From Chloroflexota bacterium (GTDB lineage: Bacteria; Chloroflexota; Anaerolineae; J102): a stretch of DNA of 5,854 nucleotides. The notes under the pieces were generated by a model. It was not told the DNA's origin, made no database searches, and saw only the letters and a list, made by a program, of their open reading frames with translations. Shown in pieces: positions 1,234 to 5,854 of the stretch. Position 1 is the first letter of the stretch. Each line of letters starts with the position of its first letter. Both the position numbers and the translations under genes were made by a program. The stretch lies in assembly GCA_003353825.1 (NCBI GenBank), contig PIVW01000377.1, positions 1 to 5,854 on the forward strand, read 5' to 3'.

Positions 1234-2793
1234 ATGGACTCCCGCCTTCACTGCAGACCGCTATTTGCTATAGCCAGTTTGATTGTAGTTTTGCTTCTGA
1301 CTGCTGGCGTAAGGTCAGCATCAAGCACGATCATCCCACCAAGTCGCCGGGTGATCTGGAAACCTGGGATTCTTGGTGGAATCCCAGAACTACTAATTGT
1401 CAATAACGTTCTCGATTTCGGCGCGGTGTCCGATAACCAAACCGACAATCGAATCGCGTTTCAAAATGCCATCAACGCCGCAGCCGCTATCGGTGGGGGT
1501 GCTGTGTGGGTACCGGCAGGCACTTACCGATTTACCTCCACCACTGCTTACAATTCCAGTATCGATCTGAGGTCAGGAGTTGTTTTGCGCGGAGCGGGCA
1601 TGGATGCGACCCACCTGGTTTTTGATTTCAACGGCGCCAGAGCGGATGCGGTCAAAATCCAAGATTGGGATTACGGAGCATTCGCACCTGTTGTAGGAGG
1701 TCATCAAAAAGATTCTAATAAACTTACTCTAGTCGACGCCTCCTCCTTTCATGCCGGAGACTTAGCAGAAATTCAGGAGGAGAACAATATCTTGATCGAG
1801 AATGAACCCTGGGCGTTGAATGCAGTCGGGGAAATGGTAGAAATCGTCTCAGTCAGCGACAATGACATCACCCTGGCGGAGCCATTACACTACAACTATG
1901 AAGCCGGCCGGTATCCAGTTATTCGCCGCGTTGGCGTCATTGAACAGGCCGGCATTGAACGCATGCATCTTAAACGAGAGGATGCAGGGCCGGGGCAGAT
2001 GGTCTTAATCTACAACGCTGCCCGTGTTTGAGTGCGCGAGGTAGAGAGTGAAGATATAACATATACTCATGTTATGGGAATCAGCACCTACAAATGTGAG
2101 ATACGTGATAGCTACATCCACCATGCCCAGGGCTATGGAACTGGCGGGCAGGGTTATGGCGTGGATCTCGAAAAACACGCCACCGATTGCCTTGTAGAAA
2201 ATAACATTTTTCAATCTCTACGGTACTCTATGGTCGTTCAGGTTGGGGCAAGTGGAAATGTCTTCGCTTATAATTATTCTCGAGAGCCCTATGCAGATGC
2301 CGGAGGTTGGACGCCACCTGATATCTCTATTCATGGTCATTTCCCTTCCTACAACCTTTTTGAAGGAAATGTGGTGCAAGAAGTGGATATCGCCGATGCA
2401 TGGGGGGCTGCAGGGCCGGGTAACACGTTTTTTCGCAACTGCACCCAGTCTGAGGGAATTCAGATTTGGGAGCCTTCTCATCAGCAGAATCTGATAGGGA
2501 ATGTTCTGGGATTATCACCAATTAACGATATCGACATTAACGCAATGGCTGAGTCTACGTTGGTGCACGGCAACTACCAAAATGGGGCAGTCCAGTGGGA
2601 TCCGAGCATTGAAAATCATACGCTCCCTGCCAGTTATTATTTGGATTCAGCGCCAGCCTTCTTTGGCGCCACAACTTGGCCAGCAATCGCTCCTGACAAC
2701 AAGACGAATCCTGCCGATTGCATGATTCCATCTCGCGCTCGTAAGTTTAGCGCTTATGGCGCCAACAGCGACAAAGTTTGGTCGATAGATTAG
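1234..2793 (+). pseudogene. Secreted pectate-lyase superfamily beta-helix protein, interrupted by in-frame TGA
   Basis: One reading frame of 520 codons is broken only by TGA at 2029-2031 (codon 266), and the frame is the same on both sides. The N-terminus is a signal peptide: charged start, hydrophobic core at residues 9-25, likely cut after V-R-S at 28. Residues 59-100 match the start of the Pectate_lyase_3/right-handed beta-helix family: VLDFGAVSDNQTDN, then AFQNAINAAAAIGGG and VWVPAGTYRF, then GVVLRGAGMDATHLVF. After the stop the beta-helix continues with CEIRDSYIHHA, GGQGYGV, CLVENNIF and GNVFAYNYS. It closes with a family-like tail, LPASYYLDSAPAFFG. The protein would be exported and probably binds or cleaves a polysaccharide, but substrate and activity cannot be read here. 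Homologues as I remember them have Trp where the TGA falls (before VREVES), so one TGG-to-TGA change explains the break. The rest shows no frameshift, so the decay is recent, or the stop is read through. The 265-residue N-terminal half could still be made. The final stop is TAG. Confidence 0.85.
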
Positions 2794-2969: not shown

Positions 2970-3283
2970 GTGGCAGACCGACTAGAGAGAAAGAGGTACA
3001 AGAGACGACAGCTAACCCGACGTAGCCAGGGACGAACCATTGAAGAGATTCGAGATAAGTTGAATCCCGTCATCCGCGGCTGGGTAATTTTCTTTGCACT
3101 GGTGGCTGCCCAAACGCATATGCAGCGGCGGGATGAATGGACGCGACGGAGACTGCGGCAGCTTTGTGGAAGCAATGGCAGACACCGGTTGCAAACTTAC
3201 GAGGTCCACACATCTTTTGGAGAACCAGACCCAATCTTCCCATTTCCGACCGCATGAACTACCATACCAGGATTAGAATATAA
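2970..3283 (+). pseudogene. Group II intron reverse transcriptase/maturase, C-terminal remnant with frameshift
   Basis: The translation from 2970 contains LTRRSQGRTIEEIRDKLNPV and then IRGWVIFFALV. This is the hallmark of the group II intron maturase-specific domain (domain X, GIIM): a basic helix, RRxxGR, xLNxxxRGWxxYF. It continues with DEWTRRRLRQL, as in intact maturases. At about 3163 the frame is lost: the expected LWKQW appears only in another frame, where it runs on with QTPVANLRGPHIFWRTRPNL to a TAA at 3281-3283. A single missing base near 3162-3166 explains this. The reverse-transcriptase palm (with its YADD box) and the N-terminal domains are absent. The upstream frame closes at TGA 2940-2942. 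I found no domain V-like hairpin nearby, so this is a dead fragment and not a mobile intron. The GTG at 2970 is unlikely to be a real start. Confidence 0.82.
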
Positions 3284-3296: not shown

Positions 3297-3367
3297 TCTA
3301 AGACCGTCCTCGAATCTTCATGTTTTGGACCACTCGCCCATACTTCCAAACGCCCCACTGTTATCCA

Positions 3368-5131
3368 ATGTCTGCCCTGACCCCCACCGCCGAATTCACC
3401 CTGCCCGAACGTTATAAAACCGACCGCCGTGGCGCCGTGCGCTGGCTGATATCCCATGCTCTCCAACATTGGTTCTTGTGGATTGTTCTGATTGTCGGCG
3501 CTTTCAGCAATGCAGCTTTGGCCGCCACCATCCCCATATTTATCGGCCAGGCCTTTGATGGCATTCTCGCCGACCCACCGGTGACCACCGTACTGCTGCG
3601 TTCGGCCTTGCTCATCCTGGCCTCACAACTCCTGCGCAGTGTCTTGCAACTGGGGCGCAACTTCAGCGCCGAACTGATCGGACAACGGGTTGAACGCGAT
3701 ATCCGCAACGAACTCTACACGAGTTTGCTGGGCAAGAGCATGACTTTCCACAGCCTGCAGCCCGTGGGCGACACCATGGCTCGGGCCACCAACGATGTGC
3801 GCGAGATCAACCTGATGTTCAATCCTGGTGTCAATCTCGTGATCGGTTCGGCCATGTTTCTGGTCATGCCGTTGTTTTTCTCCCTGCGCTACAATCCCTG
3901 GCTGGCGCTCACACCGGCGCTCTATATCATCCTCTTTGTGCTGGCGCTGGGCCAGTATCTGCATGAGTTGCAACCGATTACGCAGCGAGTGCGGGACACG
4001 TTCGGCGATATGAATTCGCGCCTGACTGAGGCCTTGGATGGGGTAGAGACCGTCAAGGGCGCGGCGCAAGAAGAGGGGGAAGTCACCCGGTTTACAGAAA
4101 CTGCACGTCATTTCCGCAATGCCTTTGTACGCCAGGGCGATGTCGAGGCCCGATTTGTCCCCCTGCTGCTGCTGGGACTTGCCAGCGCACTGGGTTTTTT
4201 ACAGGCAACGATTCTCTATCAGCAAGGCCTTATCGCTATCGGCGATATCGTCGCTTACATGGGGCTGCTACAACTACTTGGTTTTCCCACTTTTGTATCC
4301 TTGTTTGCCTACTCGCAGGTATCTTCCGGGCTTTCAGCCTCTCGCCGTATTCTCGAACTCGTCAATCGTAAGACAGATCTGGATCAAAATGTGCAAGGCC
4401 ACGCCGGCCCCATCACAGGAGAAATCGAGTTCAGGCAGGTGGTGTTCTCCTACGAGGATGAGGATCCCGCACTGCATGAGATCTCCTTCACCGTGAAACC
4501 AGGCCAAACCGTTGCCATTGTCGGCCAGACCGGCTCGGGCAAGACCTCTCTGGCAAAATTGGTCAATCGCACCTACGATGTCAATGCTGGACAGGTGCTG
4601 GTACAAGGGCTGGATGTTCGAGAGTGGAACCTGGAAAATCTGCGTCGCCAGATATCCATCATCGAACAGGATATTTTCCTGTTTTCGCGTTCAATTGCCG
4701 ACAACATCGCCTTCGGTAAGCCCGATGCCACCCGCGCCGATGTCGAAGCAGCTGCGCAGGCGGCACAGGCGCACGAGTTCATCAAGGGTTTTACAGAGGG
4801 CTACGATACCGTGATCGGCGAGCGGGGAGTCACCCTGTCAGGGGGCCAACGCCAACGTCTGGCACTGGCTCGGGCCTTTTTAACCGACCCGGCCATCCTT
4901 ATTCTCGACGACTCTACCAGCGCTATCGACAGCGCCACCGAGGACCAAATTCAGCGCGCTATCTACGCCGCCGCCAGTGGCCGCACCACTCTCATCATCA
5001 CCCACCGCCTCTCTCAAATCCGCTGGGCCGATTTCGTAGTCGTGCTCCGTAGCGGCCGCGTTGCCGCCATCGGCGCCCATGAAGAACTGTTGCAAACGTC
5101 AGAAGCTTATCGGAGGATTTTTAGCGGCTAG
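3368..5131 (+). CDS. ABC exporter half-transporter (ABCB/MsbA type), degenerate-site subunit
   Basis: This is an intact 587-residue protein with the usual fusion of a six-helix membrane domain (about residues 30-320) and an ATP-binding domain (about 345-587). Nucleotide-site motifs are all visible: A-loop Tyr362, Walker A GQTGSGKT 386-393, Q-loop Gln434, signature LSGGQ 490-494, Walker B ILILD ending at Asp514, and switch His546. The residue after Walker B is Asp515, not the catalytic Glu. In heterodimeric exporters such as TM287/288 this Asp, with an intact LSGGQ in the same chain, marks the non-hydrolysing half. The working partner would carry Glu, and none is in the window. The protein would export a hydrophobic compound, lipid or peptide across the inner membrane; the substrate cannot be told. 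I prefer the start at 3368 (MSALTP). An ATG at 3320 would add 16 residues of unlikely composition, and neither has a clear ribosome-binding site. The C-terminus stops at RRIFSG, shorter than usual, and its TAG lies in the first unit of the repeat array. The gene is clearly GC-richer than its neighbours. Confidence 0.93.
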
Positions 5132-5269
5132 TCGCGTGGTCGCGTGGTCTGTTAGTCGCGTGGTCGTATGGTCTGTTCTCTTTATCACGTTGGATATCTG
5201 ATATGGTAGTCTGTCTTTTCAAATTGGTCTTATAGTCGCATGGTCGATTGGTCGTTTCGTCTGTTCGAT
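5126..5269 (+). repeat. Degenerate 8-bp tandem array (consensus NNNTGGTC)
   Basis: Read in steps of eight from 5126, the units are GGCTAGTC, GCGTGGTC, GCGTGGTC, TGTTAGTC, GCGTGGTC, GTATGGTC and TGTTCTCT (to 5181). After five unreadable units (5182-5221) the pattern resumes in exactly the same register: AATTGGTC, TTATAGTC, GCATGGTC, GATTGGTC, GTTTCGTC, TGTTCGAT. The array fills most of the gap between the ABC gene and the four-helix-bundle gene, and its first unit contains the ABC stop codon. It is not a CRISPR: the units are too short and there are no spacers. Confidence 0.8.
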
Positions 5270-5325
5270 TCATATCATTGAATGTTTGGCACAAAAGGCC
5301 GTCTTCACAGTAGCGCGAGTGTAAA

Positions 5326-5712
5326 ATGACTACGATAAAAAGATTTGAAGATATACGGGCTTGGCAGAAGGCCCGGGAATTGGCAAAAGAAGTCTATCGA
5401 GTGTCAGGTACGGGCGCTTTTGCCAGAGATTTCTCTCTGCGAGATCAAATTCGAGACGCGGCAGGTTCCGTTATGCATAACATTGCAGAGGGCTTTGATG
5501 CCGGATACGACACCGAATTCATCCGTTTCCTACGCATGTCACGTCGTTCAGCCACTGAAGTTCAATCAGAGCTATACATTGCACTCGACCAGAAATACAT
5601 CCAACCCACCGAATTCAGCAAAATCTATGACATGGCAGATGATTGCAAAAAGACCATCAACGCACTAATCCGCTACCTAAAAACCAACCAAAAACCGCGA
5701 CCACCCAGCTAA
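5326..5712 (+). CDS. Four-helix-bundle protein, 23S rRNA intervening-sequence (IVP/S23) family
   Basis: The 128-residue protein matches the small four-helix-bundle family first seen as ORFs inside 23S rRNA intervening sequences. Motifs in order are FEDIRAWQKARELAKEVY (7-24), FSLRDQIRDAAGSVMHNIAEG (36-56, the family core SxxNIAEG), EFIRFLRMSRRSATEVQSEL (64-83) and a C-terminal helix (about 97-120). Length is typical. There is no catalytic motif. The bundle resembles Avd, the pentameric partner of diversity-generating reverse transcriptases, and nucleic-acid binding is the likely role by analogy. The actual function of the family is unknown. No 23S rRNA sequence surrounds it. Instead it is embedded in 8-bp tandem repeats on both sides, and its last codons (Arg-Pro-Pro-Ser) are written by a GACCACCC unit at 5699-5706. 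The ATG at 5326 is the natural start by homology, although no Shine-Dalgarno sequence is visible. The stop is TAA. Confidence 0.92.
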   Translation: MTTIKRFEDIRAWQKARELAKEVYRVSGTGAFARDFSLRDQIRDAAGSVMHNIAEGFDAGYDTEFIRFLRMSRRSATEVQSELYIALDQKYIQPTEFSKIYDMADDCKKTINALIRYLKTNQKPRPPS

Positions 5713-5736
5713 TACAACCCTTGGTACAGTGACACG

Positions 5737-5784
5737 GGTGACAAGGTTGCATGGTGGCAAGGTGGCAAGGTGACAAGGTGCACA
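5737..5784 (+). repeat. 8-bp tandem array (GGTGRCAA type)
   Basis: Six contiguous octamers begin 25 bases after the stop of the four-helix-bundle gene: GGTGACAA, GGTTGCAT, GGTGGCAA, GGTGGCAA, GGTGACAA, GGTGCACA. The period matches that of the array before the gene but the unit differs. No protein or structured RNA is evident in it. Confidence 0.8.
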
Positions 5785-5806
5785 TAATTCGAATCCAAGA
5801 ATTAAC

Positions 5807-5854
5807 AACCACCCGACCACCCGACCACCCGACCACCCGACCACCCGACCACCC
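5807..5854 (+). repeat. Perfect 8-bp tandem array (GACCACCC), continuing past the window
   Basis: One AACCACCC is followed by five identical GACCACCC units up to the last base of the window, so the true length is unknown. An isolated GACCACCC also occurs at 5699-5706 inside the end of the preceding gene. The reverse complement, GGGTGGTC, differs by one base from GCGTGGTC in the array before that gene, so the outer arrays are inverted copies of one another. Confidence 0.9.

What the first reader, a model, noticed from the sequence alone, without database searches (positions are those of the whole stretch)
5126..5854. Four-helix-bundle gene framed by 8-bp tandem arrays, the outer ones inverted
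Three separate arrays with the same 8-base period surround a single IVP-family gene: NNNTGGTC before it, GGTGRCAA just after it, and perfect GACCACCC beyond. The first and last are near reverse complements (GCGTGGTC against GGGTGGTC), so a transcript across the cassette could fold into a long imperfect stem with the gene in the loop. Classical 23S intervening sequences also pair their ends around an IVP ORF. This may be a free-standing mobile or RNA-processed element in which the protein acts on the repeats. The common period with differing units suggests the period itself is the constrained feature. The periods and units are seen; the link to the protein is inference.
Basis: partly seen in the sequence, partly recalled or inferred. 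Interest (0 to 1): 0.8.

Follow-up and report, generated by a model that had tools for sequence, protein, structure and literature searches.

The report
Repeat-framed gene that reads its repeats
A small bacterial protein of unknown role sits between mirror-image rows of 7-8-letter DNA repeats, and one amino acid of the protein predicts one letter of the repeat, so the protein very probably recognises the repeats of what looks like a previously undescribed kind of inserted element.

Summary
PF05635 ("23S rRNA IVP", four-helix-bundle) genes lie between two inverted arrays of 7- or 8-bp units: 90 of 127 loci (87 of 121 distinct) score >=14 against 11 of 1285 control placements. Arms show periods 7 and 8 above all.

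Relatives lack the insert: the ABC gene pair flanking the window's element lies -3 to +64 bp apart in 16 of 30 relatives read; the gene sits between them in 2. Gene-less paired arrays are scattered in the same genomes.

New result: in NIAEG[F/Y]-type proteins residue 62 predicts the first base of the core word xAC. Found on 59 elements, it was checked on other loci (53 scorable of 144): Asp goes with G in 18 of 18, any other residue in 0 of 35; Asn/Thr/Gln with A in 22 of 22; Lys/Arg with C in 5 of 5. The letter needs at least 23 changes on the tree, in step with the residue. The window fits (Asp62, GACCA).

Best reading: the protein reads the arrays, probably as DNA; these are gene-bearing and gene-less forms of a new intercistronic element. 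The RNA-stem idea is weaker. How it moves is unknown.

The parts
3320..5131 (+). Upstream ABC transporter gene (ATPase/permease); its TAG stop at 5129-5131 is the first TAG of the left array
5129..5173 (+). Left array, block 1: six TRGTC units at exact 8-bp spacing
5207..5261 (+). Left array, block 2: TRGTC at 5207, 5225, 5233, 5241, 5249 and TCGTC at 5257
5326..5712 (+). PF05635/TIGR02436 gene, 128 aa; AlphaFold2 model pLDDT 93.4, four-helix bundle like 2GSC/2RLD
5509..5511 (+). Codon 62 (GAC, Asp), first residue of helix 3 in the model; the residue that predicts the first base of the core word
5699..5703 (+). Single GACCA unit inside the 3' end of the gene
5737..5780 (+). Middle array, period 8, variant word GACAAGGT/GGCAAGGT, same orientation as the right array
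5807..5854 (+). Right array: AACCA at 5807 then GACCACCC units, inverted relative to the left array; runs off the window

Best explanation
The window holds a copy of an element made of one PF05635 gene between two inverted arrays of its own recognition word (a five-base core plus a 2-3-base spacer). The protein, whose solved relatives have five chains, binds the arrays in a sequence-specific way, and residue 62 at the start of helix 3 reads the first base of the core. Since both arms carry the word, one on each strand, the target is most likely DNA (duplex, or single-stranded arms). Elements settle between co-directional genes, where the left array can supply the stop codon and the right array a start codon. 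Gene-less array pairs in the same genomes are non-autonomous or decayed forms, possibly served in trans. Shown: arrays, inversion, period, coupling of the arms, filled and empty sites, residue-base code. Inferred: direct contact, DNA as target, trans service, and that binding helps the element to spread or persist, probably with a partner enzyme because no other domain was found.
For: Arrays. First core letter agrees between arms in 59 of 61 loci typed on both (55 of 57 distinct). Code: discovery 24 of 25 and 0 of 34; check on other loci Asp-G 18 of 18 against 0 of 35, Asn/Thr/Gln-A 22 of 22, Lys/Arg-C 5 of 5; at least 23 letter changes on a tree built with column 62 masked, Asp and G labels 17 changes each; residue 62 explains 0.87 of the letter, the next column 0.20. 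Insert. Gene-less pairs: 14 of 20 places read have both arms. Genome link: 22 of 52 versus 1 of 28. Trans: 7 genomes with only Asp62 known hold 340 GAC and 18 AAC matches, 6 with only Asn62 known (MHNIAEGF-type) 18 and 83. Solved relatives with five chains.
Against: No binding or movement was seen; all is comparative. Column 62 has no association in 26 scorable proteins of other subfamilies. Trans test exceptions: G016 (14 GAC, 0 AAC, Asn62 known), 18 AAC in G008, GAC arrays in the Gly62 genome G151 (82) and the Arg62 genome G124 (4). Proteins at the metallophosphoesterase and hbd sites form one group each, so movement is rare. Gene-less arrays may be deletion remnants. No duplication of target DNA was looked for formally.
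Confidence: 0.72

Rival explanations
1. RNA-level element like the 23S intervening sequence: the arms pair in the polycistronic transcript, the protein binds that RNA, and the hairpin is processed.
For: Arms are inverted; 9 of 10 gene-less copies fold at z below -2; elements lie in the direction of both neighbours in 83 of 100 loci; the same protein family occurs in 23S intervening sequences (passage in PMC10053308).
Against: Unit order of spacers is hardly paired in register. In one transcript the two arms carry opposite senses of the word, yet both keep it equally. No rRNA hit in the window and 19 other loci.
Confidence: 0.22
2. Not mobile but a regulatory cassette: the protein binds arrays at its own gene and in other intergenic regions to control operons; the arrays are operators.
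For: Intercistronic places, arrays at stop and start codons, gene-less arrays between other genes, long vertical persistence at two sites.
Against: Patchy filled / array-only / empty states among relatives at one site; at the ABC site 16 of 30 are tight and 2 hold the gene; L029 is nested in one site group but sits elsewhere; copy numbers of 2-27 per genome.
Confidence: 0.25
3. Neutral satellites: slippage made the arrays, which share ancestry with the gene but are not read by the protein.
For: Some arrays are long and near-perfect (e.g. L013, L029); words and proteins are both inherited.
Against: Letter and residue changed together many times; one protein column stands far above all others; arms on both sides of the gene change together; conserved core with variable spacers.
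Confidence: 0.03

Closest known systems
23S rRNA intervening sequence with IVP / S23 gene (PF05635, TIGR02436)
   Same: Same protein family; gene in the loop of an inverted repeat (the pairing ends of classical sequences are recalled, not from a call).
   Different: Not in rRNA here; arms are arrays of a 7-8-bp word; sits between protein genes; gene-less copies in the genome.
REPIN-RAYT system (PMC3116915, PMC8049555, PMC3686654: search listing and start of abstract only)
   Same: A single gene plus many gene-less inverted repeat pairs between genes.
   Different: The protein is a four-helix bundle, not a Y1/HUH transposase (that class is recalled; PMC6006769 listing); short-period arrays instead of palindromes.
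Avd of diversity-generating retroelements (4DWL, 8UB7)
   Same: Same fold by Foldseek (4DWL TM-score 0.71 by query length, E 0.037; 8UB7 E 0.078).
   Different: Little sequence identity (5-13 percent in those rows); no retroelement parts recognised among seven window proteins, apart from a group II maturase fragment.
TAACTGA direct repeats of Beggiatoaceae (PMC4679880: passages only)
   Same: Intergenic 7-bp repeats; the authors consider a repeat-binding protein as the possible mobile part.
   Different: Direct repeats in small sets; the terms intervening, four helix and S23 do not occur in the main text.

Membership tests
PF05635 / TIGR02436 | Profile match above the curated cut-off | tested here: met
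   107.4 bits against 33.8; 104.4 against 24
PF05635 / TIGR02436 | Four-helix-bundle fold of 2GSC/2RLD | tested here: met
   AlphaFold2 pLDDT 93.4; 2GSC TM-score 0.77-0.83 by query length, rmsd 1.4-1.8
PF05635 / TIGR02436 | Five-chain assembly | not testable with these tools
   2GSC and 2RLD each hold five chains; assembly of this protein not modelled
23S rRNA intervening sequence | Lies inside a 23S rRNA gene | tested here: not met
   No rRNA match in the window or in 19 further loci, only two tRNAs; left neighbour is an ABC gene
23S rRNA intervening sequence | Ends pair into a stem around the gene | tested here: inconclusive
   Arms inverted but spacers not clearly in register
REPIN-RAYT | RAYT transposase domain | tested here: not met
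   Only PF05635 found in the gene
REPIN-RAYT | Dispersed gene-less inverted copies in the same genome | tested here: met
   2 of 14 array places in G001 hold the gene
Insertion sequence | Recognised transposase | tested here: not met
   No other family in the gene
Insertion sequence | Target-site duplication | not tested
   Empty sites were compared by eye only
Diversity-generating retroelement | Reverse transcriptase with template and variable repeats beside the gene | tested here: inconclusive
   Seven window proteins scanned: only a group II maturase fragment; template and variable repeats were not searched for, and the window ends 142 bp after the gene

The most novel reading that the evidence does not exclude
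PF05635 proteins are repeat readers with a swappable one-residue-one-base code: a five-fold ring whose protomers each take one 7-8-bp unit, at the heart of a class of elements without a conventional transposase, from which the 23S IVP and the retroelement protein Avd were recruited.
Probability: 0.5. Interest if true: 0.95.

Novelty: categorically new. Interest (0 to 1): 0.88.

Why it matters
The role of the 23S IVP / S23 / four-helix-bundle family is open although it is very common (2974 relatives of this one protein). The arrays give it a substrate, and residue 62 gives a single-substitution test. It would also add a widespread class of intercistronic elements, explain many short intergenic tandem arrays, and offer a relative in which the nucleic-acid side of Avd can be studied.

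Tried and rejected
Window's own genome: none held, so what lies right of 5854 is unseen. Spacer pairing in register as the constraint: tested, marginal. Five units per arm to match a five-chain ring: medians are 6 and 7, minimum 4, compatible but not specific. Further code positions: residue 106 for word position 4 and residues 70/112 for position 5 reach only 0.45-0.55 and may be subfamily effects; left as leads. Trans test: groups were set from the proteins I knew, which was incomplete. Asp62 genomes G020, G070, G034, G081, G010, G015, G008: 340 GAC, 18 AAC, six of seven without AAC. Asn62 (MHNIAEGF-type) genomes G043, G007, G004, G002, G016, G311: 18 GAC, 83 AAC, five of six with more AAC; G016 is the exception, and G311 and G016 also hold an Asp62 protein of the SNIAEGF type. 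Both types: G009 69/17, G001 17/4, G055 40/125 (GAC/AAC). Lys/Arg/Gly62: G198 39/0 (a broken Asp62 copy found later), G151 82/11, G124 4/0, G087 0/3; the last three are unexplained. Literature: nine searches showed no paper linking PF05635 to such arrays; the library lacks most subscription journals.

Full report
What is in the window. Gene 5326-5712 encodes a PF05635/TIGR02436 protein. A left array of NNN-TRGTC units starts exactly at the TAG stop of an ABC transporter gene (5129); a second left block follows at 5207. After the gene come a variant-word array (5737-5780) and a clean GACCACCC array (5807-5854), all of period 8. Left and right are inverted to each other. The right end is outside the window and no genome is held for it.

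The pattern is general. A scan with the window's protein gave 244 relatives, of which the best 80 were kept. Period-8 arrays (score 16 or more) lie within 500 bp of the gene in 38 of 81 loci, window included, and period-7 arrays in 11 of 81. Near the genes there are 50 and 23 such arrays in 78 kb, elsewhere in the same loci 28 and 53 in 725 kb. Of the 77 loci (of 81) with at least 150 bp on both sides, 53 have TRGTY chains upstream and RACYA chains downstream; the wrong orientations occur in 7 and 1, and control windows hold such chains in 18 and 19 of 1429. Without assuming a word, on 127 of 131 loci (50 added), the upstream flank aligned with the reverse complement of the downstream flank scores 14 or more in 90, against 11 of 1285 placements elsewhere in the loci; the 131 loci hold six repeats of one another, and without them the count is 87 of 121. 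Autocorrelation in 258 arms is highest at lags 8 (z 35) and 7 (z 20) and their multiples 16, 24, 14, 28, with weaker peaks at 4, 11, 20 and 21. Distant subfamilies keep the arrangement with other words, for example L131 GATTTAC/GTAAATC and L140. Period and inversion stay, the word does not.

Anatomy. In the 53 of 131 loci with strong RACYA arms on both sides the median is 6 units upstream and 7 downstream; steps are 8 (563) and 7 (76); core positions 2, 3 and 5 are nearly fixed while spacers vary (the detection asked for the core, so its fixity is partly built in). The first core letter agrees between the arms: GG 26, AA 33, AG 1, CA 1 among 61 loci typed on both (distinct loci 23, 32, 1, 1). 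Spacers scarcely pair in register (t 2.1 and 1.6). Of 100 loci (of 131) with both neighbours called, 83 have both in the gene's direction. In 44 loci the upstream stop could be placed against the array: it is TAG in 38 and in exact phase with the array's TAG in 22. The downstream start often lies in or at the array, where the spacer GGA makes an AGGAG (seen).

It is an insert. At the window's own site 30 relatives of the ABC gene were read. In 16 the next ABC gene starts -3 to +64 bp after the stop. Eight have longer gaps (82 to 237 bp, and 554 bp in L233 with another reading frame); of these L230 and L238 hold short-period arrays without the gene and L235-L237 another palindromic repeat. In L216, the same place as L002, the gap is 528 bp and holds the PF05635 gene; L217 holds the start of it at its contig end. 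Four show no second ABC gene. At a second site (metallophosphoesterase) L151, L152 and L157 hold the gene (L157 matched over 89 residues), L154, L156 and L114 hold arrays only, and L153 and L155 have overlapping stop and start codons with nothing between. Proteins at the metallophosphoesterase site and at the hbd site form one group each on the tree, so insertions are old and movement rare. L029 is nested in the first group but lies upstream of a coaD-like gene and downstream of a recG-like one (names recalled from the protein letters).

Gene-less copies. Exact four-unit RACYA arrays occur in 23 of 80 Anaerolineae genomes: 22 of the 52 with a PF05635 match and 1 of the 28 without (Fisher p 1.8e-4). 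I read 20 places without the gene in G001 and G008: 14 have both arms, spanning 75-180 bp, and 6 only one by the strict rule. In G001 2 of 14 array places have the gene within 500 bp (counted). Of ten gene-less copies folded as RNA, nine have z below -2 and one -1.75.

The code. Among 59 elements with a clear first letter, column 62 is Asp in 24 of 25 G-words and 0 of 34 A-words (p 1.2e-15, best of 198 tests). Within the argF-site elements, where the word switched between relatives, 13 of 13 typed rows follow the rule (12 distinct; L101 repeats L025). I then took other loci: 80's list and 93; 29 were dropped as exact repeats of earlier ones, leaving 144. Of these 65 could not be scored (30 no AC in the word, 24 weak, 7 variable, 4 short or no array). 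Among the 53 scorable NIAEG[F/Y]-type proteins Asp goes with G in 18 of 18 and non-Asp in 0 of 35; Asn, Thr or Gln with A in 22 of 22; Lys or Arg with C in 5 of 5. Re-scored in the same way the first set gives, as distinct loci, Asp-G 29 of 29, Asn-A 38 of 38, Gln/His-A 6 of 6, Thr-A 3 of 4, Ser-C 1. In the later 35 scorable ones alone: Asp-G 16, Asn-A 9, Thr-A 4, Lys-C 3, Arg-C 1, Gly-C 1, Pro-C 1. Where a word held two AC steps the better conserved was used; two of the Lys/Arg cases (L364, L369) hold GAC as well as CAC and are weaker. Rows outside the rule, both sets: Ser, Gly, Pro, Tyr, Glu, Ile, Phe proteins and one Thr with C (L100). In 26 scorable proteins of other subfamilies the column has no association. 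Near relatives are not independent: with column 62 masked, the tree of 131 proteins needs at least 23 changes of word letter, and the Asp label and the G label need 17 each (8 each forced by strongly supported branches). Over 136 elements residue 62 explains 0.87 of the letter's information and the next column 0.20. In the model residue 62 begins helix 3. Recalled, not from a call: Asp-C, Asn-A and Lys/Arg-G are usual major-groove contacts, which fits this code if G and C are read on the opposite strand; contacts to unpaired bases would also be possible.

Mechanism. Both arms keep the word although in any one RNA they carry opposite senses. That favours a reader of DNA, as duplex or as separated strands. 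The likeliest account is a repeat-binding protein that marks the ends of its own element and of gene-less copies. Genome-wide words follow the resident residue in most but not all genomes tried (exceptions listed under Tried and rejected). Which enzyme moves the element is unknown. Fold kinship with Avd (4dwl, 8ub7) makes a reverse-transcription partner thinkable; nothing here shows it.

Known relatives. It works like REPIN-RAYT (listing only) but the gene shows no such transposase, and it shares the protein but not the location of the 23S intervening sequence. Nine literature searches in a partial library showed no report of the arrays or the code.

Noticed in passing
window 1234-2793: A pectate-lyase-like gene (PF12708 in its first part) is split by an in-frame TGA at 2029-2031.
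   Followed up: no
window 2970-3257: Fragment of a group II intron maturase (PF08388), without the reverse transcriptase part in this reading frame.
   Followed up: no
L419 (G008:C11:7300-11600): Three PF05635 matches in tandem within 3.3 kb; the first has an in-frame stop, the third is of another subfamily.
   Followed up: partly
L182, L183, L230, L238: The same intercistronic sites that carry PF05635 elements in some genomes carry gene-less hairpins or arrays of other short words in others.
   Followed up: no
L184, L235, L236, L237: A longer palindromic repeat (TCATTGCGAGG...GAAGCAATCTC... inverted) occupies the same kind of tight gene junction.
   Followed up: no
G080: The control pattern (the word read backwards) matched 362 and 292 times, so this genome is rich in arrays of another word.
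   Followed up: no
HisF sequences match residues 27-71 at E down to 1.5e-6 over a short stretch around GYDTE-IRF; probably a chance likeness.
   Followed up: no
PMC10910872 (one figure-legend passage): 23S rRNA IVP is spelled out in a legend on new associations of CRISPR adaptation modules; short arrays beside the gene might have contributed to such a score (guess).
   Followed up: no
Residue 106 for word position 4 and residues 70 and 112 for position 5 are weaker candidates for further contacts.
   Followed up: partly
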